A stretch of DNA of 64,000 bases from Symbiodinium sp. CCMP2592. Lineage: Eukaryota; Sar; Dinophyceae; Suessiales; Symbiodiniaceae. Positions within the stretch are counted from its first letter, which is position 1; each line of letters opens with the position of its first letter. Both the position numbers and the translations under genes were made by a program. The stretch spans positions 302,501-366,500 of the forward strand of contig CAJNDT010006019.1 in assembly GCA_905221615.1 (NCBI GenBank), read 5' to 3'. Positions 14,478 to 38,840 of this stretch are shown here, one piece after another. Under the pieces are notes generated by a model. That model saw nothing but the letters and a program-made list of their open reading frames with translations, did not search any database and was not told where the DNA came from.

Positions 14478-15301
14478 GAACTGCAGCTGGCCTCGATCAC
14501 ATGAGGCATGTGTTCTAAGCCCGATTCTTATCATTCGGTGCTCGAACACCTAGGGCGGCTGATGAGTTTCCCTACAATATCATGGTCAGATTGCCAGGGG
14601 GTCCGGGAATCTGGGCCTAGAGGATGGTCCTGGTGTTAATGGCCACTCCTCACCTGGCACAGGCCAAACATTGATTGAACACCCTCGGATCGACTGACCA
14701 ATTCTGACGTCTAGGACGACGGACGACCAGATTTAGACCATGTGGGAAGCGAACTGCAGCTGGCCTCGATCACATGAGGCATGTGTTCTAAGCCCGATTC
14801 TTATCATTCGGTGCTCGAACACCTAGGGCGGCTGATGAGTTTCCCTACAATATCATGGTCAGATTGCCAGGGGGTCCGGGAATCTGGGCCTAGAGGATGG
14901 TCCTGGTGTTAATGGCCACTCCTCACCTGGCACAGGCCAGACATTGATTAAACACGCTGGGGTCGACTGACCAATTCTGACGTCTAGGACGGCGACGACC
15001 AGATTTATACCATGTGGGAGGTGAACTGCAGCTGGCCTCGATCACATGAGGCATGTGTTCTAAGCCCGATTCCTATCATTCGGTGCTCGAACACCTAGGG
15101 CGGCTGATGAGTTTCCCTACAATATCATGGTCAGATTGCCAGGGGGTCCGGGAATCTGGGCCTAGAGGATGGTCCTGGTGTTAATGGCCACTCCTCGCCT
15201 GGCACAGGCCTGACATATACATATGTGTATATATATATATGTATACATGGTCTTGGACTGACCATATACAACGACGACCAGATCAAGACCACGTGGGAAG
15301 C
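14478..15301. repeat. Three tandem copies of a 273-bp unit
   Basis: The word GAACTGCAGCTGGCC recurs at 14478, 14751 and 15023, and GAACTGCA again at 15302, giving periods of 273, 272 and 279. Units 1 and 2 are nearly identical. Unit 3 carries a (TA)n insertion near 15215-15245. Each unit contains the near-palindrome CACATGAGGCATGTG. No open frame spans a unit, so this is probably a satellite or the core of a non-coding array. Confidence 0.9.
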
Positions 15302-18853: not shown

Positions 18854-19309
18854 TGCGTGGGGATTTGATCTCGATTATGTTGCTGCTCTCCCCACCAGAG
18901 CTGTAATGAATATAGGTGTGGCTGGCTTGCACTCTCCACAGACTGGGACCCTGTCTCTCTCACACTTCCACACGTGCAATCCTATGCAGGCAGAACCGGC
19001 GGCCGTTCCTTTTGCACTCGCTGCCGGCGGCGGTTCGTCTGTGCACGGGATAGCTCTGATTGCTCAGGATAGAAGACACATATAGCACTTAGCTATGGGC
19101 ATTGACTTGAGCCAAACGTTGCGTGGGCGGTCACATAGAAAGGTAAGGAGATGAGCACGGCTTACTCCTAGAGTCGAGGGACGCGTAGCGTGCCCCCTTA
19201 GAGTCGAGGGACGCGTAGCGTGCCCCCTTCTCTTGCACTTTACACGGTCTTGCTCACAGCTCTTATAGTGACACCTTAGAACTTGACAAGGCATCGCAGT
19301 CCGTTCGCA
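18854..19309 (-). repeat. 3' LTR (456 bp)
   Basis: Matches the right LTR along its full length and starts and ends at the same bases (TGCG...CGCA on the plus strand). Differences include a tandem duplication of about 31 bp around 19168-19230 (CGAGGGACGCGTAGCG appears twice) and several small indels. A CACTATAAGAG stretch, TATA-like in the element's sense, lies about 45 bp inside the outer 5' edge of the element-sense LTR. Confidence 0.93.
19106..19116 (-). promoter_or_regulatory. Spliced-leader-like motif in 3' LTR
   Basis: On the element's sense strand the LTR reads TTTGGCTCAAG, identical to the last 11 nt of the dinoflagellate spliced leader, followed by TCAATGCCC. It may be a relic of a trans-spliced transcript that was reverse transcribed, or coincidence. 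Confidence 0.4.
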
Positions 19310-19318
19310 CCCCCCATG
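19310..19318 (-). promoter_or_regulatory. Polypurine tract
   Basis: On the sense strand ATGGGGGG abuts the TG that starts the 3' LTR, the normal place for the plus-strand primer of an LTR element. Confidence 0.7.
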
Positions 19319-19561
19319 AGTTGCGTCTCCGACGCTGCTCACCCGGAAGATGGCACGATAGGACAACAGAAAATGTTCCGCCGCAACGTTGACATTGAAA
19401 ATCAGAGCTTTGCATCCCAATTAGAAACGTTGTGACACTCATCTACGTCAGTAACGATCCCCTGAAATGGCAAACGAATCAGGCGTCACCGAAGAAAGAA
19501 GCATTCGCGATGGCATTCCACGGGCGAAGCTCAGAGGTCACAAACTGAAAGATGATGTGGT
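19319..19561 (-). other. 3' untranslated region of the element
   Basis: About 240 bp between the last stop and the polypurine tract. No further frame or motif is seen. Confidence 0.6.
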
Positions 19562-22103
19562 TCAAGCATTGTCTCGCCACCATCTTCGCGTTGACGTAGG
19601 ATCGCGGTCCCAGGGCCGGAGGTTCTCCTCTGGATACGGGTCCCTTTGCTTTCCTTTGTCCTTGCCTTTGTTTCGGCCCTTACTGGCAATGTAGTCATGG
19701 TAGGTGTTGGTGTTCCAGCCTCCATGCTGCTCATTTCCGGTTCTCTCACGCCCTTTTGAAGGTCCCTTGGCCGAAGAAGCGCTTGCACGTTCCTCCGCAG
19801 TGACAGGCGTGTCCATGATGGAAGTAGTAGCTGGAGGGAGATAGTCAGCGGCCGAGATGTGATGTAGGGCTTCAATCTGTCCATGAAATGCGCAGGCATT
19901 TGCACATTGTGGTCCACCAGCAATCCAATGGTCTGGACTGAATGATCGGCATGAGTCAGCAGGATACCGACGGGGTCGATGTACAGGAAGTCCACCGGTC
20001 CAGTTGGCGTTGGTCGTAGCACTGAGAATTGTTGGTGTCCTGTCACCATCGGAATCACCTCGCACAGGACGTTCAGGCAACAGAAGTGCATAGCCTTCAC
20101 ATCTTCATCCCTGTTGCTCTTCAAGTACGTAGTAGGGTTGAAGTTGTCCCTGCCGATTCCCATCATGTTGGCTCCCCGTGTAAGCAACGAAAGCATCTGA
20201 TTCGTCCGGAAGCGCTTCAAAGTGTAAGTCCCGTTGGGATCGTACTGCTTGAGGTTCTCAGGCTCCTTGGCAAAGCGAATGATCTCCTCGTCAGTCACAT
20301 CCCTGCTCACACCCGTCTCTCTGTCCACTACAGCCAAAGATCCCCACTTTCCGAGCACATCATAGCGTTGGCCAAGTGCGAAATTCTCCCTCATCTGGAA
20401 CAACGGCATAGTCGCCCACTTCGCGAATCCTGACCAAGCCTTGTAGATGGTTCTGCACACCACGAATGCCATATACGAAAGAGCGGCCATGTTGGCGTCA
20501 ATGCAATGGGCATTTCGCTTTCCTGGGTAGTAGGATGGCTGCATGGCGGTACGTGCGAGTTGTAGTTCAGGATCGATGTTCAAAGACTGGCCGGCGATGA
20601 GGACGGGACGTCGTTCCTGTGCAACTGCATCTGGTACTGCGTCATCAAAGTCCTCTCCTGGCTCTGTGTCCATTTCTTCATCAGGTTCCTGTTCTGGATC
20701 GTCCTCCGCGACGACAGATGGTTCTGGGATTTCCTCAGGTTCCGCAACGGTCTCTGTCTCCATGGCTTCCTGCTCCTCGACGGTCGCCTCAGGCACTGCT
20801 GCTGCCGCGGCTTCCATTGTCTGAGCAATGAAGTCACTGGGGATCTCCGTAGGAGTCTCCCGTTGTGGAGTACCTTGGTAGTATCCGCAAGAAACGAATT
20901 GTGACCAGCAGGACGTGCATCGGGAGAAGCATGCTGGAACGATGTTGTAGCATGCCGGGCACACCCTCATTCTCCTTCCATCCTCGTCTCTGCGTAGGTC
21001 TTCGGGTCGCCAATTCTTGATGACAAACTTGATCCCTTTGTCCATGTAGTGATGCCGAACCGTGTTCTCCCTGTGGGACTCCAGGACAGTCGTAAGGTCT
21101 CGAATGATCTGCTCCTTGCTGGTGTCGTGGGGTCCAGGAGGCATCTCGCAAAGCAATTCCATGATCTTGCTTGGTGTTCGGTATCTCTCGAACTCAGGGA
21201 GCAAAGGTGATGCATTGTAGTCCAACACCATCTCTTTCTCCAACCGTTCATCGTAGATCTTTTCCACCAGAGCGAAAGAGTGTGTATCTTGAGGATTCGG
21301 GACGCAAAACCATACCTCCTTGACGAACTGGAACGGTATCGTTCGGCCAACGATGATGATGCCGCTGTCTGTGATACGTCCATCTTCTCGTGCAAGGTCC
21401 TGCGAAGGGACATGGAGGACCGCCAGCGGCATGTGCTTGGCTTGTGGTCCATGTACCCGCATCTTGGTCGTCGCATTCCGGTGATCGAACGGTGCGAATA
21501 CCCCCCAATAGCTGTGGAGTCTGCCGCCTTGGTTGCCTCGAAATTGGCGCCTATGGTCGAAGTCCCCGTCGGGGTCCTCCGAACCAGGCATGATGCCTTG
21601 CGTGACAATGGAATCCAAGTTGCGGCATGCCGTAGCGTGGAACGCGCCTCCAAGACGTTGCAAGAGGGTCATAGATGGAGATATTGCGAACCTGTTCTTG
21701 TCCAACTGAAGCAAATTGTTCTGGGGATCGGAGTGCGCAGAGTGACCACTCGTAGCCCGAACTGCCCATGGCTTCACCCAGCCGTTGCAAACGTTCAGGT
21801 ACCTCTGGCTGTGCCGGCAACGATCATTGTTCTGGATCTCTGTGATCTGGTCAGGAATCGATACCAACATGTTCGAGCCTGCGGATCCAAGAGTCTCCGT
21901 GCCGGGGTCCTTCACTCTCACTCCCAGGAACTGCAGCCGAATCTTGGCCTTGTGGCGTCTCGTGGCTGCGAGCATGTTCCCTTGGAACAATAGCTGGAGT
22001 CTTTCATTGTACACTCTCTTCCTCTGTTGATCATCGGTCCTTGAGACCGCTTCGGTGATGCGTCTGCTGTCATGGGTCCATAGTTGCTCATGCCTCACCA
22101 AAT
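19562..22103 (-). CDS. Second polyprotein, part B: Tpt1/KptA-like RNA 2'-phosphotransferase domain
   Basis: Continues part A in the next frame. Numbering from 22119: TEAVSRTDDQQRKRV at about 25-40 (family: I..V..dDKQRF), RATSGHS near 120 (family: iRA.QGHS), FHATACRNLDSI near 159 (family HGT, here His-Ala-Thr), GRLHSYW with a downstream KMR near 195-215, and GRTIPFQFVKEVWF near 258. Together with LRH at the end of part A, counterparts of the family's Arg-His-Arg-Arg active set are visible. Known members move the 2'-phosphate of spliced tRNA to NAD+. A CPAC...CTSCW zinc ribbon follows at 387-405, then a Glu/Pro acidic linker (420-520) and an unknown C-terminal region. A further single-base break near 19867 leads into a basic KGRNKGKDKGKQRD tail that stops at 19562. 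Confidence 0.72.
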
Positions 22104-25100
22104 CTCGATCAGCACCCACCCTCCTTCATCACATCGAATGACGCTGCTGAATGCCACTTGGCACCTGTTGTCAAGCCATTCCGAGCCTGGGCGCCTGGCG
22201 ATTCTGTGACGCAGGTCAGATTGAATGCATGATAGCGCCCAATCCGCGTTCCTTCTTCGATGATGGGTGATGTTGCGAAGGACAACTTCGTTCACGATGT
22301 CCCATCGATTGTGGATGAAGCTTGCACCCTTGGTTGGGATCAGGTCGAGAATCCCGCATCGGATTGGCCTTCCGCCGCCGATGGATTCGTAGCCTGCATT
22401 GGTGTAGCCCTGAATAGTATCATCATATTCAAAGCTAGGACGGTCTCCTCGTTGAGGTAGGCGTCGGTCGCGATGGTCCGAAAGCTGCTCAATGAGGTCC
22501 ACCACCCGCTGACTGTTCTCTGGTCCCATGTCCTGCAGCGGCACACCACAAGCATCATGTAAGCCCCGACGGTTCTCCACATCCGTGCAGAGATTGTGTT
22601 TGTTCTCGTAACGGATCAAGACCACATCACCCCGTACGGCTTCGCCTCCGCGTCGCGGTCGGGCTTTGGCCTTGGGTCGTCGGTCCGAGGATGCAACACT
22701 CACATGGTCTGTGGTGTCAACGTCCATTGGCTCAGCCTCTTGTGGAGGTATTCGACGTGGATATCGAAGAAGGCTTTCCTTGATGATCTGGATGCTTCGA
22801 AGTATCAGATCCCGGGTCGCAGCATTTTCCGTGCAATTGGACAGATGGTGTTGATCACTGCCACAAGCGATACAGAACGTGAGGCTATTGCTTCCGACCG
22901 ACATTTCGCCCTGAGCAAGTATTCCCACATAGTCCTGAAGCTGCGCGACAAATCCTTCACGAATCATCTGCCTGGGATCAGGGTCTTCTGCACCTTGTTC
23001 TTCTTCGGGTTGTGCATCCACATCTACATCCTGTGCAGGTATTGGTGGAGCAACAGAGACCCCTGGATCGTCCGTGACGTTGTCAGCGGCCTGTGTCTCG
23101 TCGGTCCTTGCAATCTCTACGGGGTAGATATCGCCATCGACGATCACTGTGAAGTCAATCACGAGGTCAGCGGACATGTTGTTGACGATCTCAGCGACTT
23201 GTTCATTCTTCTTGGGCGGTGTTCTCTTGCGCGGGGAGTCAACCGTGATCAGCTCGATAGCTTCGGCCGACGCGTAGCGGAAGAATGATCTTTCGATCCC
23301 CCTCACGCACGCATTTGCCCCCTCAAGGCCACCCCAATTTGGAAAATGACTTGGGTGTCTCATTGCAATTGTAAGAAGCCCGAGTGCCAGCTCCATCGTG
23401 TCACCCAGGAGTTCCTCCTTGGGCAAGGCTGACCCTCTGTAGCATTCTTGGCGCTCCTCCGGAGTCAAAAGCATTCTCATGAAACCAGCATAAGCGCAGT
23501 TCCCGGCATCGTAGTAGCAGATGTAGCATGTCTTGCCTTCGGAGTCGTATCCTCTGTCCCATGCCAACTGTTTGGCCTTTCCCCATGCCGCGTACTCGAT
23601 GGCCTGACTGGCTGTGATTCGGAGACCACCGTAGTGAGAAACCGTCTTGCCAATGTCTTCGTAGACCACTTCCGCACAAGCTTTGAGGAACTCCTTGATG
23701 TCCATGCGAGGGTCCACAAATTGAAGCCTCAGGTCATAAAGGTGCTTTGCGCAAGCCAAGGTGTACTTCTGGGACGCGACCAAGTCATTGAAGGAGCCGA
23801 TTTGATGCTGCATCTTCAAGGCTGAAGTATGCGCGCACCCAATGCAGTGTCCAGGATACCCGTTTCCAGTCGGCTTGAAGAAGGCCTGTGCGTAGCACTC
23901 AGCCAACTTCATTGCGTCACATCCAGGGCAATAGAACGTTCTCCCTTTGACATAGCCGGTGTTCGGGGTCGCGTAGGTGTCGATCCGGAACCAGTAGTGC
24001 CTGTTGTCGTAATAGGCTTCGGGGACGGTCATGGCGATGTCAAAGTCCTGCCAGGTGACTGCGGACGATTCAGCGACCGTGTCACCCTGGGCACCCGACC
24101 TGATCTGTTGCTGTTGTTCTCCCGTGAACCATGTCTGCGAAATCTTGGTGGACGTCTTGACTTCACTCTTGTCCTCCCAAATCTCGACAAGCGACGGGTG
24201 AGCGACTGTGTCGGCGCGGACAGTTTCATCCCATGAGCGGATTCTCGATGCCTCAACGAAGCACGTGGATACCATCTTCTCGCAGAACAGCTGCTTCTCA
24301 TAGATAGCGTAGCCCAATTTGAACCTGACCCGAGAGTCCGGTGCTGGCACCTTTTCGGCTGACAGTGTATGCACGCCTGATGACGCATGCTTCATCTGGC
24401 TGTACATTCTTGACCAAAACGAAGATCCATGAATCACCACGCATGCTCGGGCTCGCAACTCCAGTTCAATATACATTCCCAGCGCGTGGAAACCGTTGAA
24501 CAGAGAAGCTTTGTGCTGAAGGTAATTGCTAGCTGCTCCAACGAACCGTAAGTCGTGGTTGATGTTGACAATTGGAGGGCGCGTGGTACGCTTCCCTGCT
24601 GCAATGATAGGGTCAACGTACGTCATCTTGAGCTGTCGCTGCAAGTCAGTGCGAATTGCTGCTCCGTCTCCGACCTCACTCATCGGAAAAGACATGTTCT
24701 CGATGAGGATTGCCTGGAGAGACAGATGGTAATGCAGTGTGACGGTTGCAAGCTGCTCTTCAGTCAAGCCATCCAATGTCGCATTCACAGATTCCAACGA
24801 TCCTTTTGTGACTTGGAAGTTGTAGTTGGCACCTGTGGTGATCGACGGGCTCACAATGTAGATCTCGCTCCACCCATGCATGCCGAGGTTCTCTCTCAAC
24901 GTGTGCGTTGATCCCCTGGTCCTTGCAACCATGTCAAAGTCCTGGACGAGGATTGTGCATTGAGAGCGCATAGTCGCGGCATCAGGTTTGCCACCCATAC
25001 CCAAACTATTGCGAAATCCGTTCAGCGTGTTCATGGTGTTGATCCTTGCTTCTTCCGGAATGTCATCGTTGTCGACAAGATCGCGATCTGCCTCGATCAT

Positions 25101-27014
25101 CACTGCCGAGGTAAGCATTGGAGGAGAAGGAAGATGCACGCATGATACCAATGCCAATGCATGGTACAGCCGTGAATACATCCGAAGCCACACCTTTGTA
25201 CTCAGCTTCACGTAGACCTTCAGGTTGAGACCCTTGTCATCACTTTGTGAGACGGAACGAATCCTTGCCAAATAGGTCACCAGTCTTCTGACGTAATGCT
25301 GAATCGGCGTGGTCCCCACGTCGTGGTTGGCCACAAACTTTGGCGTCTCATCAATGGTAGGTGGGTACTCGTCGTGATCACGGGTCGTCGTCAGCAAGAT
25401 CGAACGACAGCCTTTCTCATTGATGTTGACATAATGATACCAACTTTCCTGAGCGCCAGCAGGGATTGGAGCTTCCTCCCATGTCGGTTGCGATGGTTCC
25501 TCTTCCGGTTGCGAAGGCGGTTGTTGTGGAGGAGGTGCCGCAGAAGATGACGACGCCGATGCCGTTGCCTCGTCCGTCCTTGCCCTCTTTGGTCCGTGGC
25601 TAGGGGTGGCTCGAGGTCCGGCAGCGGATCCTTGCGATTGTTCCGGCGTTCTTCCATGCTCAGGGTGCACGATTCCTTCCGGTTCGAGGTTGCTTGCCGT
25701 AGGCATCGCAACTCTCCCCGTTGAGTATACCCAGCTAGGATGCCGTTGAAGGTTGGGCGGAAACAGGCCATCATCTTGCATAAGCGGACTTGGTGCCCTC
25801 ATCTGTTGGAATTCCGCTTCCCATATGCCCAATGTGGCGCGTTTGGTAGAGCAGTCGACCACGTACCCAGATTCAACTCCGCATTGATTCCAGGTGTAGC
25901 CACGGAACGCATCCGGCAATTGGAAACCGTTCTTGTCCTGAGCTGCACATACGGCATCCACATGGTACTTGAGGAAAGCATACGTGGTGTAGTCGGAATC
26001 GGGGAGCACGTCATTAGACCATCGATAGTGCGGGAGTCCAGTTTGTGGATCGATCCATGATACATAGGAATGAAGCACGTAGAGACAAACACTGAACGCC
26101 TGGAGTGAGTTCATCGCAAAGGCGAGCGGATGTCCCATGCCTTGAGGCAATGTGCGCATCATCAAAGCCAGCTGGTGAACGTTGATTGGCGTAGCGCCAT
26201 CGTTGCCCGCTGCACATTCCTGGTTGTAGGTCCGAAGCCCATACCCAGTGTGCTTTGCGAACATGTACATCAGCTTGCACACCCTACATAACGTAGGCTC
26301 TCCCAACAGGTCGGATTGGTCAGGTGCTCTGCCTGACATAGGCAACTTGTGGTAGTAGTCCTGATTCACCGTATACCATTGTTGAATTCTCGTGTCTGTC
26401 ACGGCCTGGTAGGGCGTCTCCACGGAATTGATGAGAACGGCGAGATTGTAGTACACGTCCGCATTGACGATGTTCCTGGTTGCAGTGTTCAAGTCGAACC
26501 GAACTTGTTGTCTTTCTTGTTCCAGTTCAACCACAGCCAACTTTGCATCATCGCGGATCACTTCCTCATCCACCATAAATCTTGTGATGGCATGAAACTT
26601 CCCTCCGTAATCAGCAACAACGTGCTTGAGACCTCCACCAAACTTGATGACCATGGCGAGAACCTCCCCATAAGGTTTATTCATGTACTCCTCCGGGGCG
26701 GCGAATAAGCAAGCCTTGAGGATTTCTCGAACTCGAATGGAAAGATCCCCTCCTGGCGACAGATTTGCACACGTGAACAGCAAGACCAAAGGAGGTGCTT
26801 TGAAAGCTGCCCATGTGCGAATGAGATCATTGTCGACCACTTTGTCTTTCGTAATCTTTGGCGGGAGCGAAACGCTCTGCGACGAGTCCTCAGAATACAT
26901 CTGCAGAAACTTGTGGAACTTCAGGAACGTCCGCATCATCCCACCAGAAGGGAAAACTTCTTCATGGTCCACTCCTTCGAAGGCCAGCTCGTAGGCATTG
27001 TAGCTTTCACCCAT
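22104..27014 (-). CDS. Second polyprotein, part A: zinc-finger protein with CCHC knuckle
   Basis: 1,639 codons from a true ATG in strong context. Residues 1-430 are globular and unrecognised. Residues 440-540 are a Ser/Pro/Gln/Glu linker (APPPQQPPSQ). Residues 540-1000 are another unknown globular region. A Cys cluster at 1029-1060 (C-x2-C ... C-x2-C) and CYICYYDAGNC near 1162 look metal-binding. A perfect retroviral-type CCHC knuckle (C-x2-C-x4-H-x4-C) lies at about 1379-1392. The end carries LRHRIARRPG and DEGGWVLIE, the N-terminal signatures of the Tpt1/KptA family. It stops in TGA at 22095 where a single-base break shifts the reading to part B. Its position after Pol is that of an additional or env-like ORF, but nothing resembles an envelope protein. 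Confidence 0.82.
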
Positions 27015-27125
27015 GGCTCGGGATTCGGTCCTTCCTCCGTAAGAGAGAAGTACCCACCCCTATGCGACTTCACGGTTCCGGGTGCTCTGTAAGAGGCACC
27101 CTTCCCCGATCCGTCGGGTCAGACC
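27015..27125 (-). promoter_or_regulatory. Spacer between Pol and the 3' reading frame; strong start context
   Basis: 111 bp separate the Pol stop from the ATG at 27014, whose context GAGCCATGG is a strong Kozak match. The spacer contains a pyrimidine-rich run (TACTTCTCTCTTAC) followed by GGAG, which could serve as a trans-splice acceptor for a spliced leader and so give the downstream frame its own capped mRNA. No promoter is visible. Confidence 0.45.
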
Positions 27126-29399
27126 TTAGTTGTTCCTTAGTTGGGGCTGTGTTATAGCCCCTTCATCAGCGTCTATACACTGACGTTGCTGCCATGCAAT
27201 GTCCTCAGATTCATGTGCAACATGACTGACACTGACATGAGCTCGAACAAGGCTGCGAACATTCCTCGCAATCGACCGCCATGACACATCAATGCGCTGC
27301 GACAAACTGCTCTTCGATTCATGGTCCAAGCAATCATCCATTCTCACCATCAAACGATCCGCTTCAGGCATGTTAGAGAACATGATCCTGCGTCCACCAC
27401 CATCGCCACCAGCACCAACATGGTCATCAATCTTAACCTTCGTCACCTTGCCACTTGAAACAAGAGCATGCAACTCTGGCCAAGACCAACATGAACATGA
27501 AGAAGGCATGTCAAGCGAAAAATAGACGTCGGAAAATTCCGCACACTTCTTCAGCAGGCGTTTGAGAGATTTCAAGACACTTCTGAAAACCTTGTACTTC
27601 CCACCGGAACGTTTCTCACCCCCCACGCAAGCCCCTTCACTACTTCCAGGACCAACACCTGATCGCAAAAGCGATGCCACGAATAGCACAGGTGTGCGCA
27701 GGTCATTCCGGCACGCATCCTTCATTGCACCGATAAGGCTGTCCTCATCGGCCTTAGAGCCAATTAGCTCCTTGCAAGTTATGCGAGCGCATCCCTTAGT
27801 GGACTTAGGCACGGCGTAGCCATTGCCCAAGCCACAGAGGTCAACAATCATGCGGTCAGGCTTTCGTCCACCAGCCTTCGACGGCATTGCTACCAATCTC
27901 CCATCGCCCGTTGCCTGAAATTTCAAGGCTTTAAGCAATCTCCTGGAGATTTGGCTAGTCAACTCGCATTTATCAGATCGATCCTTAGCGTCCGAATCGG
28001 TCATGTGCAAATGTTTGGACGAGCACACGTCAGACGACTTAGGATGCAACGCGACGTTTGCGGCAATGTACTCCCATTCATCCTTGCAGTAGCCGAGCTC
28101 AACGGCGGTTCCGGGAGATACAGGATCCCGAAAGGTATAACGTTGCCCGTGAGTGCATCCTTGGATCTTGATGCTCTTCCACATGGCATCTTCCTGAAGT
28201 CCCTTGTACTGCTTGGTTTCCTGGACTGGTACTCGAGGAGGTACTTCGATGATGATTTGGAACCCCCATGATGCCGCTCTGCGCGCAATTCTTTGGACGA
28301 CCTCCCCCCATGGGTAGTCTGTCCGCAATTTGGCCCTTTCAGGGTTGTCAGCGATTTTCCGACTCAGCCACGAATTCTTGCCCAACACCCCTGCGCCAAT
28401 GAAGATCACGGAGTTAGGGTTGTTTTTCCTTGCTTCCACCACATCGAAGAGGTAGGCACACATGGCGTCGTCAACTTCTCGCCCCATACTCAGAACATTC
28501 ACTTGCAGCCCAGGGTCGTAGTGAGAATCGGGAGCATGCTGCGCAATGCAGTCCTTGCCAGGAGCATACTCATTCCACCAGTTCTCCTCATCGACTCCTA
28601 CCAATGTCCACACCGTCACTGCCTTTGGAGCATCTTTGATAGTGATACGGTATTTCCAACGGCTGTAAGGATTTTTGTAAGTATGGACCAACCCTCCATC
28701 GTGGTCGAGGAATTGGATCACCAGGCCCTCCTTGGGTTTGTTTTCGGCGAAATTGACCACGTGAGGCACAATTGCTCCATCATATCCTTGATATTCCCTT
28801 TTCTGTTCAGCCGCATCATGCCATACATCCTCGTACACTGACGACCATTGGTCATAGCCGAATTGGGAGGCTTGACTTTTGGACTGGCCGTTGAAACAAA
28901 GAGGTAATGTAAAGCCCTGGTACCCCCCATGGATGGCACGCGCCAGTGTGACAACCACCGCTCGCCATTTGGCGGGCAGGGCGCGCACATAAGACTGGCC
29001 CAAAGGCGGTTCAGGAGGAGGCAAAAACGGCGGCGCAAGGACGTCCGCAATAGCGGCTGGGCGCAAATGCCCCCGTACCGGATGGTACTGAAACACAGCA
29101 CGCTCCACATAGCGGTCGAACTTGCCCGGTTGATCAAGGATAGCAGCACGGTCCTCCATTTGGTGCCACTGCCCTTCACGAAGAATCCAAGTCGACCGAA
29201 GGTAGCGACCAGGCGGCAACGCGGAAGGCGGCCCCCGCAGCATGCGCGGGAACTTGACAACCAGGATGGGGTCCACACTGTCATGTTCTTGCAAGCCTTC
29301 CTTACTCGACAATCCAGCGCGATACAACACCTGAGGGAGGATCGGCGTCTGCGTGTAAGGAAAACAAGGCACCTCGCTCTTGAACGAGTAATGCTGTTG
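27126..29399 (-). CDS. Post-RNase H extension of Pol, unknown function
   Basis: About 757 codons lie between the second frame break and a TAA at 27126. It begins SFKSEVPCFPYTQTP and ILPQVLYRAGLSSKEGLQ, a sequence type I recall right after RNase H in other dinoflagellate copia elements, so it is probably the natural continuation of Pol rather than a separate gene. Residues 1-350 include a Trp-rich globular region, and residues 270-360 have SVIFIGAGVLGKNSW and a following helix. The C-terminal third contains CGLGNGYAVPKS, VLFVASLLRSGVGPG and VYFSLDMPSSCSCWSWPEL. The Gly-rich turn after a hydrophobic strand recalls a Rossmann or methyltransferase fold, but I cannot identify one. No transmembrane segment is evident. 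Confidence 0.75.
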   Translation of the reverse strand, partial: QQHYSFKSEVPCFPYTQTPILPQVLYRAGLSSKEGLQEHDSVDPILVVKFPRMLRGPPSALPPGRYLRSTWILREGQWHQMEDRAAILDQPGKFDRYVERAVFQYHPVRGHLRPAAIADVLAPPFLPPPEPPLGQSYVRALPAKWRAVVVTLARAIHGGYQGFTLPLCFNGQSKSQASQFGYDQWSSVYEDVWHDAAEQKREYQGYDGAIVPHVVNFAENKPKEGLVIQFLDHDGGLVHTYKNPYSRWKYRITIKDAPKAVTVWTLVGVDEENWWNEYAPGKDCIAQHAPDSHYDPGLQVNVLSMGREVDDAMCAYLFDVVEARKNNPNSVIFIGAGVLGKNSWLSRKIADNPERAKLRTDYPWGEVVQRIARRAASWGFQIIIEVPPRVPVQETKQYKGLQEDAMWKSIKIQGCTHGQRYTFRDPVSPGTAVELGYCKDEWEYIAANVALHPKSSDVCSSKHLHMTDSDAKDRSDKCELTSQISRRLLKALKFQATGDGRLVAMPSKAGGRKPDRMIVDLCGLGNGYAVPKSTKGCARITCKELIGSKADEDSLIGAMKDACRNDLRTPVLFVASLLRSGVGPGSSEGACVGGEKRSGGKYKVFRSVLKSLKRLLKKCAEFSDVYFSLDMPSSCSCWSWPELHALVSSGKVTKVKIDDHVGAGGDGGGRRIMFSNMPEADRLMVRMDDCLDHESKSSLSQRIDVSWRSIARNVRSLVRAHVSVSHVAHESEDIAWQQRQCIDADEGAITQPQLRNN

Positions 29400-32300
29400 C
29401 CCTTCTCATCCGTGCTCTGGGTATGAGTAGGGCGCATCAGATCCATAATCTCTTGGGAGCCAATGAGGGCCGGCGGAAAAATGTTGATGAGCTGACACGC
29501 ATGTGTCCAGGACACAGAATCCTTGAACGACTTGGTGTGTATGTCCGCTGACATCTTGGCAGTGACCTCATAGGCAAGAGAAACGTAACCTTCCTGAAAG
29601 ATAGAATGCATCCATCCAATGCAGATGCCGTGGGTACGTTCCAAATGACGCATAGTCGGATTCTTGCCCGTGCGAATCACCCCGATCATGGTCTGGTTGT
29701 CGTCGTAGAAGACGAAGTTGGGGTCTTGCCCCCCAAGCTGCTGCCACAACGTGATAGCAGGCAATCCAAGACGTGACATGGCAAAGTCGGCCGCGACAAT
29801 CTCGGCCTCAGGTGTGGAATGACTCAAGCACCCCTGCCTTTTGCTAAGTCCCGCCAAGGGAAATCTTGTGTGAGAACCTTGAATGTGCAAGTGAGCACCG
29901 GAGGTAGATTTCAAACTTTCTCCACAACCTGCATAGTCCGCATCTGCAAACAGCCCGATGGACGAGTCCTCCAAGGAGTTCCCGACCCATCCAATCATCA
30001 TGTGATGTTTGGACTGGTGCACATAGGCCATGAGATGATGAAGAAGAGCATCCTCCTTCTTGGTCCATTTCGTGATCTTGCGTGCGAGATTGTTGATACT
30101 GCGCAGAAGATCAAAGCGGCAAATGCGCGCGGCATAAAGCAATTTCATGAGAATGCTTGCTGCCTGCGGAGCAAGTGCACCGCGATTAGCCTCGTTGATC
30201 TCCTCTTCCTCTGGCGCCTTGGGAATAGGTGGAGGCGGAACAAGCCGACCATCCTTATCAACAGGCATGGTGTGTCCACACCACGTGCATCGATGGCTTT
30301 TACCTGACTGTGCCGGAGCGCGAGCTGGGTGATTCTTAGTCTCCTCAGCCGGACTCGGCGATGGTACCGTCTTGAATTTTGTCGGATCGAACCCAGTCAC
30401 GTCGCAGTACTTCTTGACTGTCATGTCCAGGTACGTCTCCATGTCGTAGGTAACGGTCTGCACCTTCGTTTTGTCATGCAACGTTGCCTCGCCCTTGGAG
30501 ATGCGACAACCCAGATACAAACCTAGTGGCGTTTCTTCTTCCAATCGAAGTTCTTGGCGCAGCATGTCCCAACCCTTGGGCAGGTTCTCTTTGGGCCCTG
30601 CCATCTTGAGATCATCCACGTAGATGACAAGTAAGAGCTTCATCTGCGGGTGGAAATACAATGATGGCCATTCGTCGCCAATCGGCTTGAATCCTACTTT
30701 CTGTACCGCGGTATGGCAATGTTGTTCCCACATGGTTCCTGCGTCAGGATGTCCATATAGGGCTTTGATCAGGCGACACACAGGTCTACGGAATTTATGC
30801 CTTTTCGCAGATGGATGCCAGGCTTCATCAGGCAGTTCAACCCAACATGGAGTGCCCGATAGTCTCGCCTGAATGTATGCTTGGATAGCATCCGCCATCT
30901 GGACATCGTTGCCAGGAAGGCATCCGTAATAATCTGCCCACCGTGAGGCGTCAAACGTAGCCGGGGAATTCCCCAAATCCTGAAACAACGCGGCTTCCAT
31001 ATTTTGATCTTTGACCTGATCACCGAGTAGTACACCTCGCCCTTTGAACTTCCTGGCAGGATCGTCCTCTTTGAGCTGATAGTTCTTCTCGTATATCAGT
31101 CCATGTACTCGCGCCATATGTACTTTCTCACCTTTCTTCTTTGCCTCAGCGACGACGTCGTCATATTCACGCGTAGTTGAGAAATCAAACACCTCTTGGT
31201 CCCACAATCCCTTCCATTCTTTCATGAAAGCTTCCATGGCCTTGGGGTTGTTGACCATCTCCTTGCGTGTGACGGGTCGAGTGACCATGGCATTGAAGCA
31301 TGATCCTCCTGCATGATTCTTTTCCCGATGTACGTTTCTGTGAGAAGTCGTACACGGCATAGACGGAATCCAGTTATCATCCATGACCATATGCGCCGGA
31401 ACGGCCGGCACGACGTCTGACAAGAATTGTTCTTGTGTGTATTGATCCACATAGGACTGTGCCCAGGACCATCCATCGTCGTCGTCAATGGACACGTTGA
31501 GTTGCAGATCAATTTCTTCACATGGAACAATCTTGGGAAAGATCATGTTGTCCAAAACCTTGGTGACTATCTTCTTTCCTATCGCGGCTTTCTTCCGGTC
31601 CTTCTTGGCAACTCGAGCTTTGTCTCGCTTTTCTTTCTTGTACGCTGCCTTCTTCTCCGCTTCACTCATTTTCTTCCATGCTTCCGGAGAATAGGAATGG
31701 ATAGGTCGCCGTGTAGGGAGAGTTCGTCGACCATCGCTTCGGATCTTGTATGGGACTCCCCTTTTATCGATCTTGCAGGCTTCACCATCATCAGTGAGAT
31801 ATACAATGCCGTCCCCTTTCTTCCCCGTACTCCAATGTTCAATCTCCTCAGGAGCCAACTTCTTTTCTTTCAAGATCTTAATGATCTCTCCAGGTTCTTC
31901 GATGTCTCCTTCGGGGATGAGTCTACCGGTTGGACCGACTTCGCGGGGCGATCGCCGATCTTTCCCAGTGACCTTTGGTTCAGAAGGAGGCGGTGCTGCA
32001 CGTAGACCTAGCTCTTCGTCTAGTTCTTCGAGTCTTTTGTCTCCTATAGCATCAATAGCTTCATGTTCTGCTGACTTGAAGACTTCGCCAGACGGCTCCG
32101 TCTCTATGTCAGATGGATCTATGTCCTGTAAGTCAGGATCTTCTCCGGGATCCGGTGGAGGAAGAAGACCATCTTGATCATCATCATCCCCGTTGCCACC
32201 ATTTCCTCCAGGCGGACCGTCATCCCCGTCATCGACGTCTTTTATCTCCTTGCCAGCGAGGTCAACGTTGTCCCTGAGTCCCTCAATGGTTGAGTTCATC

Positions 32301-32686
32301 CTCTCGTACTCGGCTTTCAGGGGAAACGTTATCTCCTCTGGGAAGTAGATAACTTCTGTCTCGTACGGTCTCATCAACTTCCTGGGAACAGATGCGTCCA
32401 TCGACAAGTTCGCATTGGCAAATTCCTTCATGTCCCACACGCGATACTTCTTGGACCACCCTTGACCAGCAGTGATGATGTATCCGGCAAAAATGCCTGG
32501 GATCCCCTTTGGATCGAACTTGTTGCCATATGTCTTCGGCCTTGTATCCGTCGGCTTGAAGAAGACTTTGGCCCCAAATGGTATGGCTTTTCCCTCGAAG
32601 TCCTTTCCAGTCATTCGTTTCCATGCTGAATCACCATCGCCCTCCACGTCTTCGATGTTGAGGTTCTGCATCACGCAATTCAGCGC
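29400..32686 (-). CDS. Pol: integrase C-terminus, reverse transcriptase, RNase H
   Basis: The frame is open from the break at about 32687. Numbering from Met 32674: residues 1-100 continue the integrase (FFKPTD, IPGIFAGY, typical of the copia integrase C-terminus). Residues 100-330 are acidic linkers. Reverse transcriptase of the copia type (RVT_2) runs from about 440 to 780, with FKGRGVLLGD, LIKALYGHPDAG and the catalytic YVDD near 685. A Cys/His insert (CTWCGH) follows near 790. RNase H follows with FADADYAG near 909, STPEAEIVAAD near 953 and DDNQTM near 990. The protein ends in-frame near THTQSTDEKG, where a second single-base break moves the reading to the next frame. The catalytic residues all look intact. 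Confidence 0.92.
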
Positions 32687-35600
32687 AAAGACCAGTATTG
32701 GGCGGGTAATCCGGCGTGTAGCATGGATGCTGCGCCTGTGTTGATCACTTCTTGATTTGATCGTTCAGCGAGTGAATTGTTACTGGGTTTCCCTGGAAGG
32801 GAATGATCTATCACGATCTTCAACTGCGCCATAGCTGAATCGAACTCTGGTGCTTCATCACTATACGCCATATGAATCTTGCGTCTTCCCATTAGGCGTC
32901 TGATGGCCATGACGACCTCGTCAGTATTCCTTGAAGCCGTGGGAATCGCTGCGATCATTTTGGTGGCGATGTCTCTGATGACTAGAACTTCACGTGCTCC
33001 ATCATCGAGTCCGATACCTGCTTCGGCGGCCTTGCGCATATCGAGGAAGTCGAACGTCACAAGATCCCCCCAGTGTTTGATCACACGTTGAAACGCACCT
33101 CGTTGTGTCCGCAAGTGCTTCATCTTCGCGCGTATGCACGATTCGCAATATGGATTGCGGTAGCGATGAGTACACAGATGTGCCAACGTCTTGGCTTCGG
33201 CTTTCAGTGTTCCGACTCTGGCCTTGCGGCTCGGCGCACCGTCGCCTTCCACATCAATGATCACCTCATCGTCACCGTCCAATGGAATTTCACCCACTCC
33301 TTTTCCTTCGTCGTCCGGAGGTCGTCCGGCCTCGGACTCTGGTACTTCTTCTATAGGAGGTTCTTGGGGTTCAGGATCAGGAGGTCGTTCATGATCGTCA
33401 CCTTCTTCTTCTGCTTCAATTTCGCCCGGTGCAGCTTCAGCGGCAGCTGCGACACTGACGTCAACATCACCCGCGGTTAGCACACCCTTGAAGATTTCGG
33501 TGATCGCTTTGGCCTCCGGATCATCATGAACCAGTGACTTGGAACTCCCGGCGCGAATGTACGGGATGTCACCGTTCACGAACAGAGATATTCTCTTGCC
33601 CTGCGGGTTGATCATGAATGGTTCCCTTCCGGGTGGCCACACAAACCCGTAGTTGAAGTTCATACATCTCTTGCCTATGGAAAGCACCGACGGTGTGTCA
33701 TCCAACACATAAGCGTTGATCGGTTCCTCGAACGACTCAGTCTGGAAATTCGACACAAGATCGGTATCGGTGATTCCATTTGCTGTCTGAAATGATATGG
33801 GCTCTGGAGTCACGAGTGTCTCGAGACTATGCTTCTCGATCTTCTTCTGAGATATGAGGTCGTGGCCACACCCAGTGTCCATGAGAAACTTGATCTTCTT
33901 CTTGAGGATGACTGGTTGAACCATGCATTTGAATACACCTTGATTGATGATCCGTTTGCTGTGCGCAGCATCGAGTTCACGCTCAACGATGGAATCCTCA
34001 CCGTCGTAGAAGGAAACTTCTTCCACCCGAGACGTTCCTGGGATTCGTACGAATGAAACTCGATCTCCGCATTGATCATCATCGTCGTCAACCATGTCTC
34101 TCATGATCTGTGCCCTCAATCTCGCTTTGTGCTTAGCGAATTCCAAATTCACGGCGCGATCCTCATTGTTGACAAGCGCTTCCATGTCGACGTACTTCAC
34201 CTTCCGCTCCTTGTCCTTCTTCGATCTTCTAGGACACGAAGAAATGAACTTCGCGTCATCGGCGAATGTCACATTACGCTTGATCTCTTTTCGGGTCGAC
34301 GTAGTCGGTCCCGAGGATTCGTCGTCTGTTGAACAATCCGAATCAGCGTCGCTGTCAACGAATGGACAATCTGACTCCTCCTCATCTTGTCTTGAAGATC
34401 GCTTCCATATAGCCGGGGCTGATGGATTCCACCTTCGGCACAATCTGATGGCGGGTGCCGCAGGGAGTGCCTTGGCCTTTGCATTCGGCTTCGCTGGAGC
34501 TGCCTTTGCTTCGGATTTGGCTTTAGCTTTTGCCTTTGGTTCCGGAGCTGGGGTAGCTGCTGCCTCATGCTTGAAAGGACAATTCTCTCTTGAGCACGAG
34601 CCTGTGTTCTTGAAAGAGTAGCATATCCTATTTCCTCCTCCTCCAGACGGACTTGGAGTTCTCGTCCTCGGCGTAAAGGGTCGCTCTGGGGTCTTCTTCG
34701 AGTGACTGAATGGGCACTTGTCACCATTTCGACACCCTGCATCTGTGAAATGGAACTTGCAGCGGATTTGCTTCTTGCTCTTGTCGTCTCTGTTGTCCGC
34801 TGACTCACTCCTCGTCTTCTTCTTGGGCTTTGGCTTGGTCTTCGCATGACTCTTCGCTTTGCTTTGAGGTAGTACAGGTGTTGCTTTATCCGGCTTGGTC
34901 GGCGAAGCCTTGACCTTTGCGGATGGAGCTGCGTTAGGCGTTGGTTTCTCAGGTACCTTGGCCGGGGCAGCGAGCAAATCCTTGCCCTCAAGCATCTGGC
35001 GCAAGCCAATTTGGGTCTGAGTGAGATTTGATTGTTCTCGTCTCCGCATGATGGTACGGTCGATGATCTTCATCAGATTGTCGTACGATCGGTCTTCATG
35101 ATTGTAGGGCAAGTGTTCGTAGTGCCTGCCCAACTCCATCTTCATTGCGGGCGAGTCCTTGATCTTGCTGTACAAGCAATCACGGAGAGCTGTTTTGGAT
35201 GGTATGTCTTCTGGCCTCATCCGTCCCAGAACTTCCAACCACGTCTGCTTGAACGTATGAAGTTTGTTGTCTCCTTGGTACTGGAGCTTCACCAGATACT
35301 CGAGAGTGATGATCATGTCGAGACGATCATGCGTTCGAAAACTTTCATACATCATCGCAATGATTTGTCGTCCTTTGATGATCTTCCCTTCGGGCCTGCT
35401 GATGTAATCGTTGGCCTTCCGGTTCACCTCCAGGTACAGGTCAGCAGATTTGTCACCACCAGCGCGTAGCATTGCGACCATTGCGATCCCCAATTTGACG
35501 TCTACGCTCTTGAACTTCTTGTGTCCTGAATCGTTCAGTTCTTCGACATCAGGGAATGGGTTGAATGCTGGTGCCAGCCATAACATCCAGTCCTCATGAT

Positions 35601-36332
35601 TTGGATCGGCTGATGCTCCTAAGACATTCGCCGTGCATACGGATCGCCAGTTGTTGAGGTGAGTGAGAGTAGGCCATGGAGGAACGGTCACTTTATCGGC
35701 TTCCCTCCTGGAAATTCTCACCTCTGTGACTTCAGGATCTGCGTCTCCATCAGGATCACGCGCATGAGGGTCAGGATCCGAGTCAGGTTTGCCTCCACCG
35801 CTTCTCTTCTTATCATCATCGTCATCATCAGGCGGATCTGGAGGGTCATACCCCGTTCCGGCTCCTTCATCATGCTCTCCCTCTCCGTTCTCGTCGCCAG
35901 CTTCATCACCGTCATCGTCTCCATTGTCTTCCTGAATCGTTTCAGCGAATAATCTCCACTCATCACGATCAGCTCTGAGACGCTGTTCGGCTTTCTGGGC
36001 CTTGAGTACTTCGCTTCGCAGATCGGCAATCTTCTCTTCGTACCGTTCCGCGACCTCTTTCTCGATCTGACGTCTCCTTGCTTCATGAATGGAATCGTCA
36101 TAGGCAATAGGGGGACCGATGAGGTCGTTGCCCTTCGTAGATGCGCTGATACCGTCGACACCAACAGGTCTTGAGGAGCTGGCAGATGCTGTGGACTTCG
36201 ATCCCAACATCCCGCGATCCTCCAAGAGTTCGCGTAGCTGTCGATCACGCACGGCTGCCGCATCACTTTGCCCATGAAATCCGCTTGGTATGCCAAACAG
36301 AGTGGCTGCACTAGGCGTGGAACGCGCATGTG
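32680..36332 (-). CDS. Gag C-terminal, protease and integrase core (exon 2)
   Basis: About 1,217 codons continue from exon 1. Numbering from the Val codon at 36252: 45-115 coiled coil; 115-185 acidic Asp/Pro linker; 190-430 a Trp-rich helical Gag/UBN2-like region; 499-518 a CCCH finger (C-x8-C-x5-C-x3-H); 543-561 a second (C-x8-C-x4-C-x3-H); about 560-620 a Lys/Ala-rich linker; 792 the DTG of an aspartic protease (FLMDTGCGHDLIS); 1027-1042 the integrase HHCC motif (H-x3-H-x6-C-x2-C); catalytic Asp near 1064 (VTFDFLD) and 1129 (YSDEAPEF) and Glu near 1163 (LAERSNQ). The last two acids are separated by 30 residues, not the usual 35. The frame ends in TGA just after AQYW, in the middle of the integrase, and continues in the next frame back. 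Confidence 0.9.
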
Positions 36333-36606
36333 CTGGGTTGGTAATAATACTAATAATTAATATATTAATATAAAACTTATATAATAAATTATTTATATTA
36401 TATATATATAATTGCGTGATTATAAATAAGTATTATTTTATATATAATATATATCTAATATAAAATAAAGTAAATAATAATACTTCTAATATATTAAATT
36501 ATTTATAAATAATATAATAATATTATTAAATATATATAAATAATATTTATAATTATATTTTTATAATATGATTTATAAATATTTTTATATAAATCTATAT
36601 TTTTAC
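36333..36606 (-). other. 274-bp AT-rich GT-AG intron inside gag
   Basis: On the sense strand the exon ends CCAG and the intron starts GTAAAAATAT. It ends TTACCAACCCAG before CACATGCG. The interior is over 85% A+T by eye, against about 50% around it. Removal joins codon 566 (G plus CA) and continues the same frame into the 1,190-codon exon 2. CCAG stands at both ends, and GGTAATAATA at the left edge is an imperfect inverted copy of TATTTTTACC at the right edge (9 of 10). That structure is what an introner-type DNA insertion would leave. Confidence 0.8.
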
Positions 36607-38302: not shown

Positions 38303-38354
38303 TGTGGTCGTAGTAGATCAAGTAGTCGTTGCTGTAGAAAGGCAGAGCCGCGTA

Positions 38355-38366: not shown

Positions 38367-38840
38367 TGCGTGGGGATTTGATCTCGATTATGTTGCTGCT
38401 CTCCCCACCAGAGCTGTAATGAATGTAGGTGTGGCTGGCTTGCACTCTCCACAGACTGGGACCCTGTATTGTCCTCTTTCTCACTTACCCACACGTGCAA
38501 TCCTAATCAGGACAGAACCGACCGGGCGGGCCCGCGGCCTTTCCCTTTTATTGCACTCGCTGCCGGCGGCGGTTCGTCTGTGTACGGGATAGCTCCGATT
38601 GCTCAGGATAGAAGACACATATAGCACTTAGCTATGGGCATTGACTTGAGCCAAGCGTTGCGTGGGCGGTCACATAGAAAGGTAAGGAGAAGCGATGCGG
38701 TGTGCGTAGCACGTCCACAAGCTTACTCCTAGAGTCGAGGGACGCGTAGCGTGCCCCCTTCTCTTGCACTTTACACGGTCTTGCTCACAGCTCTTATAGT
38801 GACACCTTAGAACTTGACAAGGCATCGCAGTCCGTTCGCA
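38367..38840 (-). repeat. 5' LTR (474 bp)
   Basis: Partner of the LTR at 18854-19309. It has one copy of the segment that is duplicated in the other LTR. It also carries extra sequence at about 38690-38720 (around GCGATGCGGTGTGCGTAGC) and an extended GC-rich stretch near 38520-38535. The number of indels implies the LTRs are not freshly duplicated. Confidence 0.93.
38645..38654 (-). promoter_or_regulatory. Spliced-leader-like motif in 5' LTR
   Basis: The corresponding place in the other LTR reads CTTGGCTCAAG in the element's sense, so ten of the last leader bases are kept with one substitution before them. Confidence 0.35.

What the first reader, a model, noticed from the sequence alone, without database searches (positions are those of the whole stretch)
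19562..22226. Tpt1/KptA-like RNA 2'-phosphotransferase domain carried by a retrotransposon
Seen: across the junction of two minus-strand frames, the motifs LRH, DEGGWVLIE, a DDQQR helix, RATSGHS, His-Ala-Thr, a downstream Lys-Met-Arg and GRTIPF occur in the order and rough spacing of the Tpt1/KptA family, with counterparts for its Arg-His-Arg-Arg active set. Known: the family transfers a 2'-phosphate from RNA to NAD+ after tRNA splicing. Inference: the element captured this enzyme, making it part of a second polyprotein with a CCHC knuckle.
Basis: partly seen in the sequence, partly recalled or inferred. Interest (0 to 1): 0.88.

Follow-up and report, generated by a model that had tools for sequence, protein, structure and literature searches.

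The report
RNA-repair enzyme inside a dinoflagellate retrotransposon
A large jumping gene, probably from an alga related to coral symbionts, carries a divergent copy of Tpt1/KptA, an enzyme that uses NAD+ to clean 2'-phosphates off RNA; this copy is broken, but relatives keep the domain and its key residues.

Summary
On the minus strand, 22217-21331 carries the motifs of a divergent Tpt1/KptA domain, split by a frame change near 22104; relatives P0001 and P0124 read through there in one frame. The domain lies in the second polyprotein of a roughly 20-kb Ty1/copia-type LTR retrotransposon (18854-38840; LTRs 87% identical, TG..CA). A gene model from Symbiodinium sp. KB8 shows the same order, pol end - ORF3 - ORF4 - Tpt1. 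Homology to Tpt1 is firm at profile level: hhalign score 69.2 against a maximum of 28.9 in 200 column shuffles. It is marginal for single sequences: Pfam PTS_2-RNA reaches its cut-off in 2 of 25 relatives scanned whole. The Arg-His-Arg-Arg set is complete in 21 of 22 relatives that show all four columns, but the fourth Arg is a candidate only. No structure prediction was available. The window copy is broken. Best reading: a captured RNA 2'-phosphotransferase that intact elements probably use on RNA ends or 2'-phosphates during replication. The enzyme family is shown; activity and role are inferred. The paper listings that I searched showed no Tpt1/KptA in a retrotransposon.

The parts
38367..38840 (-). 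5' LTR, begins TGCGAACGG and ends CCCCACGCA; a GGTTATCAGCC stretch follows it (primer-binding-site-like)
   Evidence: Direct repeat with 18854-19309, 418/482 identical. The PBS likeness is recalled, not computed.
36503..38317 (-). first ORF, 604 aa; gag-like by position only
   Evidence: no significant Pfam family
32680..36432 (-). gag-protease-integrase ORF: CCCH zinc finger (34761-34702), aspartyl protease motif MDTG (33882-33871), weak integrase match at its end
   Evidence: Pfam zf-CCCH E=4.5e-5 (above cut-off), gag-asp_proteas E=1.7e-4 (below cut-off), rve_3 E=0.088 (below cut-off); motif places
28718..32764 (-). integrase end, reverse transcriptase (RVT_2, YVDD at 30622-30611), then a stretch I call RNase H from recalled copia motifs (no family match)
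   Evidence: RVT_2 E=1.9e-8, 34.7 bits, cut-off 31.6; residues 923-1123 are 92.5% identical to P0125 1-201
27126..29405 (-). ORF3, 759 aa, no known family
   Evidence: No significant Pfam, NCBIfam or PDB match; 52% identical to P0125 199-825
22095..27059 (-). second polyprotein, first frame (1654 aa); ends with the start of the Tpt1 domain (DLRH, GGWV)
   Evidence: 76% identical over 1639 columns to P0124; profile positions 2-66 at residues 1587-1654
22833..22874 (-). CCHC zinc knuckle CIACGSDQHHLSNC
   Evidence: C-X2-C-X4-H-X4-C; whole pattern in 16 of the 18 relatives that show C-[VIL]-[AYL]-C-G there
21229..22301 (-). Tpt1/KptA-like domain, interrupted by a frame change near 22104; motifs at 22217-22197, 22130-22104, 21945-21922, 21759-21739, 21642-21631, 21528-21508, 21471-21454
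19531..22125 (-). second polyprotein, second frame (864 aa): rest of the Tpt1 domain, a Cys cluster (CPACYNIVPACFSRCTSC, 20961-20908), acidic linker and C-terminal part
   Evidence: 78% identical to P0124 1636-2378
19562..20104 (-). third frame: C-terminal tail of the polyprotein, after another frame change near 19870
   Evidence: 58% identical to P0124 2394-2490
18854..19309 (-). 3' LTR, preceded by ATGGGGGG (polypurine-tract-like, recalled likeness)

Best explanation
This is the 3' part of a decayed, roughly 20-kb Ty1/copia-type LTR retrotransposon of a Symbiodinium-like dinoflagellate. Downstream of pol such elements encode a second polyprotein of about 2,500 residues with a CCHC knuckle and an enlarged Tpt1/KptA domain. 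In intact relatives I expect the domain to bind NAD+ and an RNA phosphate and to catalyse the Tpt1 reaction: the 2'-phosphate attacks NAD+, and ADP-ribose cyclic phosphate leaves. The most likely use is RNA clean-up before or during reverse transcription. It would remove 2'-phosphates left on the element RNA or its primer tRNA by breakage and ligation, so that the template is copyable. Shown here: domain homology, place in the element, conservation of most active-site residues, and continuity of the ORF in relatives. Inferred: catalysis, substrate, and benefit to the element. The window copy itself is broken in at least two places of this polyprotein and is not expected to work.
For: LTR pair flanking the whole set, TG..CA; RVT_2 above cut-off, protease motif, weak integrase signals before RT. 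The KB8 gene model P0125 runs from the pol end through ORF3 and ORF4 into the Tpt1 domain, and P0124 has a continuous 2490-aa second polyprotein. PTS_2-RNA at or above its cut-off in P0040 (27.4) and P0114 (26.0 as printed), just below it in P0001 (25.0) and P0038 (25.4), and matching 12 of 15 domain rows at E<=1. Four of 128 relatives carry PF01885 in the database's own annotation. A profile of the family finds only two PDB sequences, both Tpt1 (E 0.017 and 0.39); a second profile again puts Tpt1 first (E 0.047). hhalign 96.5%, E 8.4e-10; 69.2 against a maximum of 28.9 in 200 shuffles. Residue counts: R18 71/71, H19 66/71, K66 72/76, R68 74/75, H101 55/58, T103 56/58, R139 42/44, candidate R121 49/53. 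Tetrad complete in 21 of 22.
Against: Single sequences are marginal: the window ORF is E=0.0089, 16.5 bits against a cut-off of 26. phmmer of it finds no Tpt1 in the PDB. P0124, P0125 and P0126 give no PTS_2-RNA match at E<=1, nor do P0002 and P0004 at E<=10. The confident part of the hhalign match covers the GHS-HAT-NAD-lobe stretch only (94 columns); LRH and GWV join it when the confidence threshold is lowered. The RNA lobe carries a 44-column insert between K-x-R and the GHS motif. The counterpart of CthTpt1 Arg121 is not settled: the GRLHS Arg stands opposite a gap about ten columns from the KptA Arg; leaving out columns before it aligns the two, but only one of seven lengths tried (13 columns, 92.2) beat its controls (best 88.2). 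P0125 ends inside the domain, and P0126 lacks GWV and HAT. No structure, no activity data, nothing on the substrate. Pfam recognised no RNA ligase or 2H phosphoesterase in the element, so partner steps would come from the host or from unrecognised ORFs.
Confidence: 0.72

Rival explanations
1. The domain is a Tpt1-derived ADP-ribosyltransferase with another job. It could cap 5'-phosphate ends of the element's RNA or cDNA with ADP-ribose, or modify a host factor, instead of removing 2'-phosphates.
For: Tpt1/TRPT1 enzymes are reported to ADP-ribosylate 5'-phosphorylated RNA and DNA ends (PMC6582358, passages). The divergence and inserts here allow a changed substrate. KptA domains in RNA-virus polyproteins are discussed as RNA-processing or conflict parts (PMC9503650, passages).
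Against: Counterparts of the residues that bind the RNA phosphates in CthTpt1 (Arg18, His19, Arg68, Lys66) are kept in 71/71, 66/71, 74/75 and 72/76 relatives. This argues that phosphate recognition is retained; the tetrad is also needed for 5'-end ADP-ribosylation by TRPT1 (PMC6582358, passages), so it does not separate the two.
Confidence: 0.3
2. The domain kept only its RNA-binding (winged-helix) role, as a nucleocapsid-like part of the second polyprotein, and catalysis is lost.
For: It sits in a polyprotein with a CCHC knuckle and a Cys cluster. The NAD-lobe Arg121 counterpart is not settled, and a few relatives lack single residues.
Against: NAD-lobe residues are conserved about as strongly as the RNA lobe: H101 55/58, T103 56/58, R139 42/44. 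Tetrad complete in 21 of 22.
Confidence: 0.12
3. The Tpt1 polyprotein is a host gene or another mobile element that happens to lie inside the copia element.
For: Identity to P0125 falls from 92.5% at the pol end to 42% in ORF4, as if modules had separate histories.
Against: One LTR pair flanks everything, and no other repeat pair over 80 bases lies wholly inside 18854-38840 except AT-rich sequence near 36342-36591. The ORFs of 600 aa or more there are all on the minus strand; two plus-strand frames of 260 and 241 aa overlap them. The window and the KB8 gene model share the order.
Confidence: 0.05
4. Chance resemblance of short motifs, not homology.
For: Weak single-sequence scores.
Against: 0 of 1441 decoys at 8 bits against 17 of 131; 200 shuffled profiles; only Tpt1 sequences found by profile in the PDB.
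Confidence: 0.02

Closest known systems
Tpt1/KptA/TRPT1 RNA 2'-phosphotransferase (Pfam PF01885 PTS_2-RNA; structure paper PMC6333775, passages read)
   Same: Order LRH - GWV - K-x-R - (V/I)RAxxGHS - HAT/HGT - R; counterparts of Arg18, His19, Arg68 and of the NAD-lobe His101, Thr103 and Arg139 kept in nearly all relatives that show them, plus a candidate for Arg121
   Different: About 350 profile positions against 177 in the Pfam profile; a 44-column insert in the RNA lobe; embedded in a 2.5-kaa retrotransposon polyprotein; most single sequences below the Pfam cut-off
Ty1/copia LTR retrotransposons (Pseudoviridae; family name recalled)
   Same: LTRs with TG..CA, protease motif, weak integrase signals before RT, RVT_2 with YVDD, long ORFs on one strand
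   Different: About 20 kb; a long region downstream of pol (ORF3 and a 2.5-kaa second polyprotein) with a Tpt1 domain; CCCH fingers in the gag-side ORF
SymbioLINE-Dnmt and SymbioDIRS-Dnmt3 (PMC5890265, passages read)
   Same: Symbiodinium retrotransposons that captured a host-type enzyme and keep its key residues
   Different: LINE and DIRS classes with a DNA methyltransferase; that paper says Copia elements there lack DNMT, and its main text does not contain 'phosphotransferase'
Bdelloid rotifer LTR elements with extra ORF3 enzymes (PMC5408684, abstract read)
   Same: LTR retrotransposons with a captured enzyme ORF besides gag and pol
   Different: DEDDy exonuclease or GDSL esterase, not Tpt1; animal hosts
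KptA domains in polyproteins of RNA viruses (PMC9503650, passages read)
   Same: KptA embedded in a polyprotein of a parasitic replicon
   Different: Picorna-like virus and nidovirus, not a reverse-transcribing element; 'retrotransposon' and 'retroelement' do not occur in the main text

Membership tests
Tpt1/KptA RNA 2'-phosphotransferase | Match to PF01885 at its curated cut-off (26 bits) | tested here: inconclusive
   Window ORF 16.5 bits. Of 25 relatives scanned whole, P0040 (27.4) and P0114 (26.0 as printed) reach it; P0001 25.0 and P0038 25.4 just miss. P0124, P0125, P0126: no match at E<=1; P0002, P0004: none at E<=10. 12 of 15 domain rows match at E<=1.
Tpt1/KptA RNA 2'-phosphotransferase | Profile-level homology to cellular KptA | tested here: met
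   hhalign 90.0%, E 1.7e-6 with 15 against 8 rows; 96.5%, E 8.4e-10 with 31 against 87; 69.2 against a shuffle maximum of 28.9
Tpt1/KptA RNA 2'-phosphotransferase | Arg18-His19 of the RNA lobe (LRH) | tested here: met
   71 of 71 and 66 of 71 relatives with the column; present in the window
Tpt1/KptA RNA 2'-phosphotransferase | Arg68 with the nearby Lys66 | tested here: met
   74/75 and 72/76. The alignment to KptA D-K-x-R-F appears once the 44-column insert is left out (72.0 to 82.2); same-length deletions starting at columns 70-130 also raise the score (77.4-82.2), so the placement is supported, not proved.
Tpt1/KptA RNA 2'-phosphotransferase | Arg121 of the NAD lobe | tested here: inconclusive
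   Candidate is the Arg of GRLHS, 49 of 53. In one search it stands opposite a gap. Leaving out 10 columns before it aligns it with the KptA Arg; of seven lengths tried only 13 columns (92.2) beat its 15 controls (best 88.2).
Tpt1/KptA RNA 2'-phosphotransferase | NAD-lobe His101, Thr103 and Arg139 | tested here: met
   55/58, 56/58, 42/44
Tpt1/KptA RNA 2'-phosphotransferase | Winged helix plus ADP-ribosyltransferase fold | not testable with these tools
   Structure prediction not accepted
Tpt1/KptA RNA 2'-phosphotransferase | NAD+-dependent 2'-phosphate removal | not testable with these tools
   Needs an assay
Ty1/copia LTR retrotransposon | Paired LTRs, TG..CA | tested here: met
   418/482 identical
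Ty1/copia LTR retrotransposon | RVT_2 reverse transcriptase | tested here: met
   34.7 bits against cut-off 31.6
Ty1/copia LTR retrotransposon | Integrase upstream of RT | tested here: inconclusive
   Placed upstream, but only by weak matches: rve_3 E=0.088 and SH3_retrovirus E=0.0029, both below cut-off
Ty1/copia LTR retrotransposon | RNase H | tested here: inconclusive
   No Pfam RNase H match; named from recalled motifs and its place after RT
Ty1/copia LTR retrotransposon | Target-site duplication | tested here: not met
   CCAAT beside the 5' LTR, AAAGT beside the 3' LTR (read by eye); can be lost in an old or recombined copy

The most novel reading that the evidence does not exclude
A retrotransposon lineage carries its own NAD+-dependent RNA repair or RNA ADP-ribosylation enzyme, kept under selection, which acts on the element's RNA (or on host RNA defence) as part of its replication cycle.
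Probability: 0.5. Interest if true: 0.85.

Novelty: new variant of a known kind. Interest (0 to 1): 0.7.

Why it matters
Tpt1 is widespread, yet in most organisms outside plants and fungi no pathway that makes RNA 2'-phosphates is known (stated in PMC6582358, passages). A retroelement that carries and keeps this enzyme would point to RNA phosphate clean-up, or RNA ADP-ribosylation, as a step worth encoding for a reverse-transcribing parasite. It would also give a clean genetic setting to test that. It adds RNA repair to the enzymes known to be captured by retrotransposons (DNMT in PMC5890265; DEDDy exonuclease, GDSL esterase and dUTPase in PMC5408684).

Tried and rejected
Programmed frameshift at the domain junction: rejected, because P0001 and P0124 read through the place in one frame, so the window copy is simply broken. 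DDQQR as the Tpt1 K-x-R-F motif: rejected in favour of KIRLQFLG. phmmer of the window ORF against the PDB: two chance matches, no Tpt1. NCBIfam: nothing at E<=1 for three ORFs. ORF3 against the PDB: nothing at E<=1. P0124 against the PDB: six unrelated matches, best E=0.1, no Tpt1. The RT ORF gave one spurious antibody hit, E=0.0037. A whole-protein profile of 17 relatives gave Tpt1 first (E 0.047) and then seven proteasome-subunit sequences at E 1.7-2.4 from the acidic linker. IMG/VR scans with E. coli KptA and with the family alignment: no relatives. Rfam (gathering) and tRNA scans of the window: none. PMC5718144 uses 'phosphotransferase' in another sense (passages). The heat-activated Ty1-copia paper on S. 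microadriaticum (PMC5776459) is not held; I know it only as cited in PMC11453091 (passages). PMC6380556, the one paper listed, was not opened.

Limits: relatives come as clusters, mostly from unnamed contigs; counts are not corrected for shared descent; several counts use the profile that those relatives helped to build; no DNA of relatives, so no Ka/Ks. In one search only the 8000 candidates sharing most words were scored. The host is called Symbiodinium-like from the six relatives whose rows name an organism, all Symbiodinium, not from a record of the window. Paper listings were partial: 20 of 2080, 20 of 37, 20 of 34, 15 of 108, 10 of 12 shown.

Full report
WHAT IS THERE. The window holds a set of long ORFs on the minus strand between 38317 and 19531; two plus-strand frames of 260 and 241 aa overlap them. 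A direct repeat of 418/482 identical columns lies at both ends, 38840-38367 and 19309-18854. Both copies begin TGCGAACGG and end CCCCACGCA. GGTTATCAGCC follows the first copy and ATGGGGGG precedes the second, the usual places of a primer-binding site and a polypurine tract (likeness recalled). Between them Pfam finds CCCH fingers, an aspartyl protease (below cut-off; motif MDTG), weak integrase signals, and RVT_2 above its cut-off; YVDD is present. No RNase H family matched; I use that name from recalled motifs. RT type and layout are those of Ty1/copia elements. The element is about 20 kb. The bases beside the LTRs (CCAAT, AAAGT) do not form a target-site duplication.

THE FINDING. The window's second frame matches PTS_2-RNA at E=0.0089, 16.5 bits, under the cut-off of 26. 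A protein search with that frame gave 19 relatives. A second search with a 15-row domain alignment gave 110 proteins, 104 of them new, and a third with the upstream frame gave five. Six rows name an organism, all Symbiodinium; P0001 (S. microadriaticum, 94% identical over 24% of the query) carries PF01885 in its record, as do P0038, P0040 and P0114. P0124 (2490 aa) aligns with the window's frames in turn: 76% to ORF 27059-22095, 78% to ORF 22125-19531, and 58% to a third frame at the tail. So at least one relative has a continuous second polyprotein, P0001 reads through the domain junction, and the window copy is broken near 22104 and again near 19870.

IS IT TPT1? Single-sequence evidence is mixed. 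PTS_2-RNA matched 2 of 10 relatives at E<=0.1, and 7 of 10 (two at or above cut-off: P0040 27.4, P0114 26.0 as printed). It matched 12 of 15 domain rows at E<=1 (one row is the window's own frame), P0006 at E=0.056 but not P0002 or P0004, and none of P0124, P0125 and P0126. As a profile, the family's only PDB matches at E<=10 are two Tpt1 sequences (8tfz E=0.017, 8tfi E=0.39). hhalign of 15 against 8 rows gave 90.0%, E=1.7e-6 over 45 columns. With 87 cellular KptA sequences (E. coli, six other bacteria and one archaeon, plus 79 actinobacterial loci) against the 31 relatives that cover at least 75% of the profile (of 126 with a hit), it gave 96.5%, E=8.4e-10. The confident part is 94 columns from the GHS motif on; LRH and GWV align when the threshold is lowered. 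The trimmed profile scored 69.2; 200 column shuffles reached at most 28.9 and the reversed profile 17.3. A KptA HMM scored 8 bits or more in 17 of 131 sequences (best 13.8; the window frame 7.2) and 0 of 1441 decoys (best 6.1).

ACTIVE SITE. In CthTpt1 the essential tetrad is Arg18, His19, Arg68 and Arg121; Lys66, His101, Thr103 and Arg139 are further residues discussed (PMC6333775, passages). In the relatives (123 proteins; n is those with a letter in the column), the counts are Arg18 71/71, His19 66/71, Lys66 72/76, Arg68 74/75, His101 55/58, Thr103 56/58, Arg139 42/44, and the candidate for Arg121, in GRLHS, 49/53. Of 128 proteins searched, 126 had a hit, 22 had all four tetrad columns and 21 of these kept all four; the exception is P0038. 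Sixteen had all eight columns and 12 kept all eight. Under strict patterns for six motifs only 6 of 128 pass; many entries are partial. Arg68 equivalence rests on the K-x-R of GKIRLQFLG: leaving out the 44 columns between it and the GHS motif raised hhalign from 72.0 to 82.2 and aligned it to KptA D-K-x-R-F, but deletions of equal length starting at columns 70-130 also raised it (77.4-82.2), so this is support only. The Arg121 candidate stands opposite a gap. In one search, leaving out 10 columns before GRLHS set its Arg on the KptA Arg; of seven lengths tried (6, 8-13), six stayed within their controls (81.0-83.8) and one, 13 columns, exceeded all 15 of its controls (92.2 against 88.2). I count it as a candidate.

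IS IT PART OF THE ELEMENT? Besides the LTR pair, P0125 from Symbiodinium sp. KB8 runs from the pol end (92.5% identical to the window) through ORF3 (52%) and ORF4 (42%) into the Tpt1 domain (46%) as one gene model, which ends inside the domain. The self-comparison shows no second repeat pair over 80 bases wholly inside the element except AT-rich sequence. Along ORF3 the identity is 84-100% per 25 residues in the first 100 and 24-64% from residue 176 to 500. The accessory region evolves fast or is exchanged between elements.

HOW IT MAY WORK. The family reaction is known (PMC6333775, PMC6582358, passages). That this domain does it is inferred from conserved residues in both lobes. I favour clean-up of RNA phosphates on the element RNA or its primer before or during reverse transcription. 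5'-end ADP-ribosylation is the main rival. A purely RNA-binding role is less likely, because NAD-lobe residues are kept. Pfam recognised no ligase or 2H phosphoesterase in the element, but ORF3 and most of ORF4 match no known family, so partners may be hidden there. The confidences of the readings overlap and need not add to one: the best reading includes family, place and probable catalysis.

WHAT IS KNOWN. Symbiodinium LINE and DIRS elements captured DNA methyltransferases (PMC5890265, passages). Bdelloid LTR elements captured other enzymes (PMC5408684, abstract). KptA occurs in RNA-virus polyproteins (PMC9503650, passages). Searches joining Tpt1, KptA or phosphotransferase with retrotransposon, transposable element, Symbiodinium, Symbiodiniaceae, polyprotein, fusion or retroelement, and searches on dinoflagellate or Symbiodinium copia elements, gave no report of this in the rows listed. 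They cover open-licence PMC papers only, several listings were partial, and most listed papers were not opened. I therefore call it a new variant of a known kind (enzyme capture by a retrotransposon), with an enzyme that I did not find reported there.

Noticed in passing
window 39201-43670: About 57 copies of an 80-bp AT-rich unit (160- and 240-bp higher periods) that also matches itself on the opposite strand, mostly at 73-79%; it starts about 360 bp beyond the 5' LTR.
   Followed up: no
window 16043-17597: About 20 copies of a 74-bp unit with extreme AT skew (-0.49), on the other side of the element; long ORFs run across it on both strands.
   Followed up: no
window 47572-64000: Tandem units of about 6 kb, 99.4-99.6% identical, without an ORF of 200 aa or more.
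   Followed up: partly
window 8389-8508: About 17 degenerate copies of CCCTAAG, telomere-like (recalled), away from the window ends.
   Followed up: no
window 14471-15216: A 273-bp unit in 2.7 copies, 97% matches.
   Followed up: no
window 27126-29405 and P0125: ORF3 has no known family. Identity to P0125 falls from 84-100% in its first 100 residues to 24-64% between residues 176 and 500, a possible exchange point between pol and the accessory region.
   Followed up: partly
window 34761-34702: CCCH zinc fingers in the gag-side ORF of a copia-type element (two stretches).
   Followed up: no
P0001: The closest relative lacks most of the NAD lobe (window frame residues 193-350 have no counterpart); deletion or a predicted intron, not resolved.
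   Followed up: no
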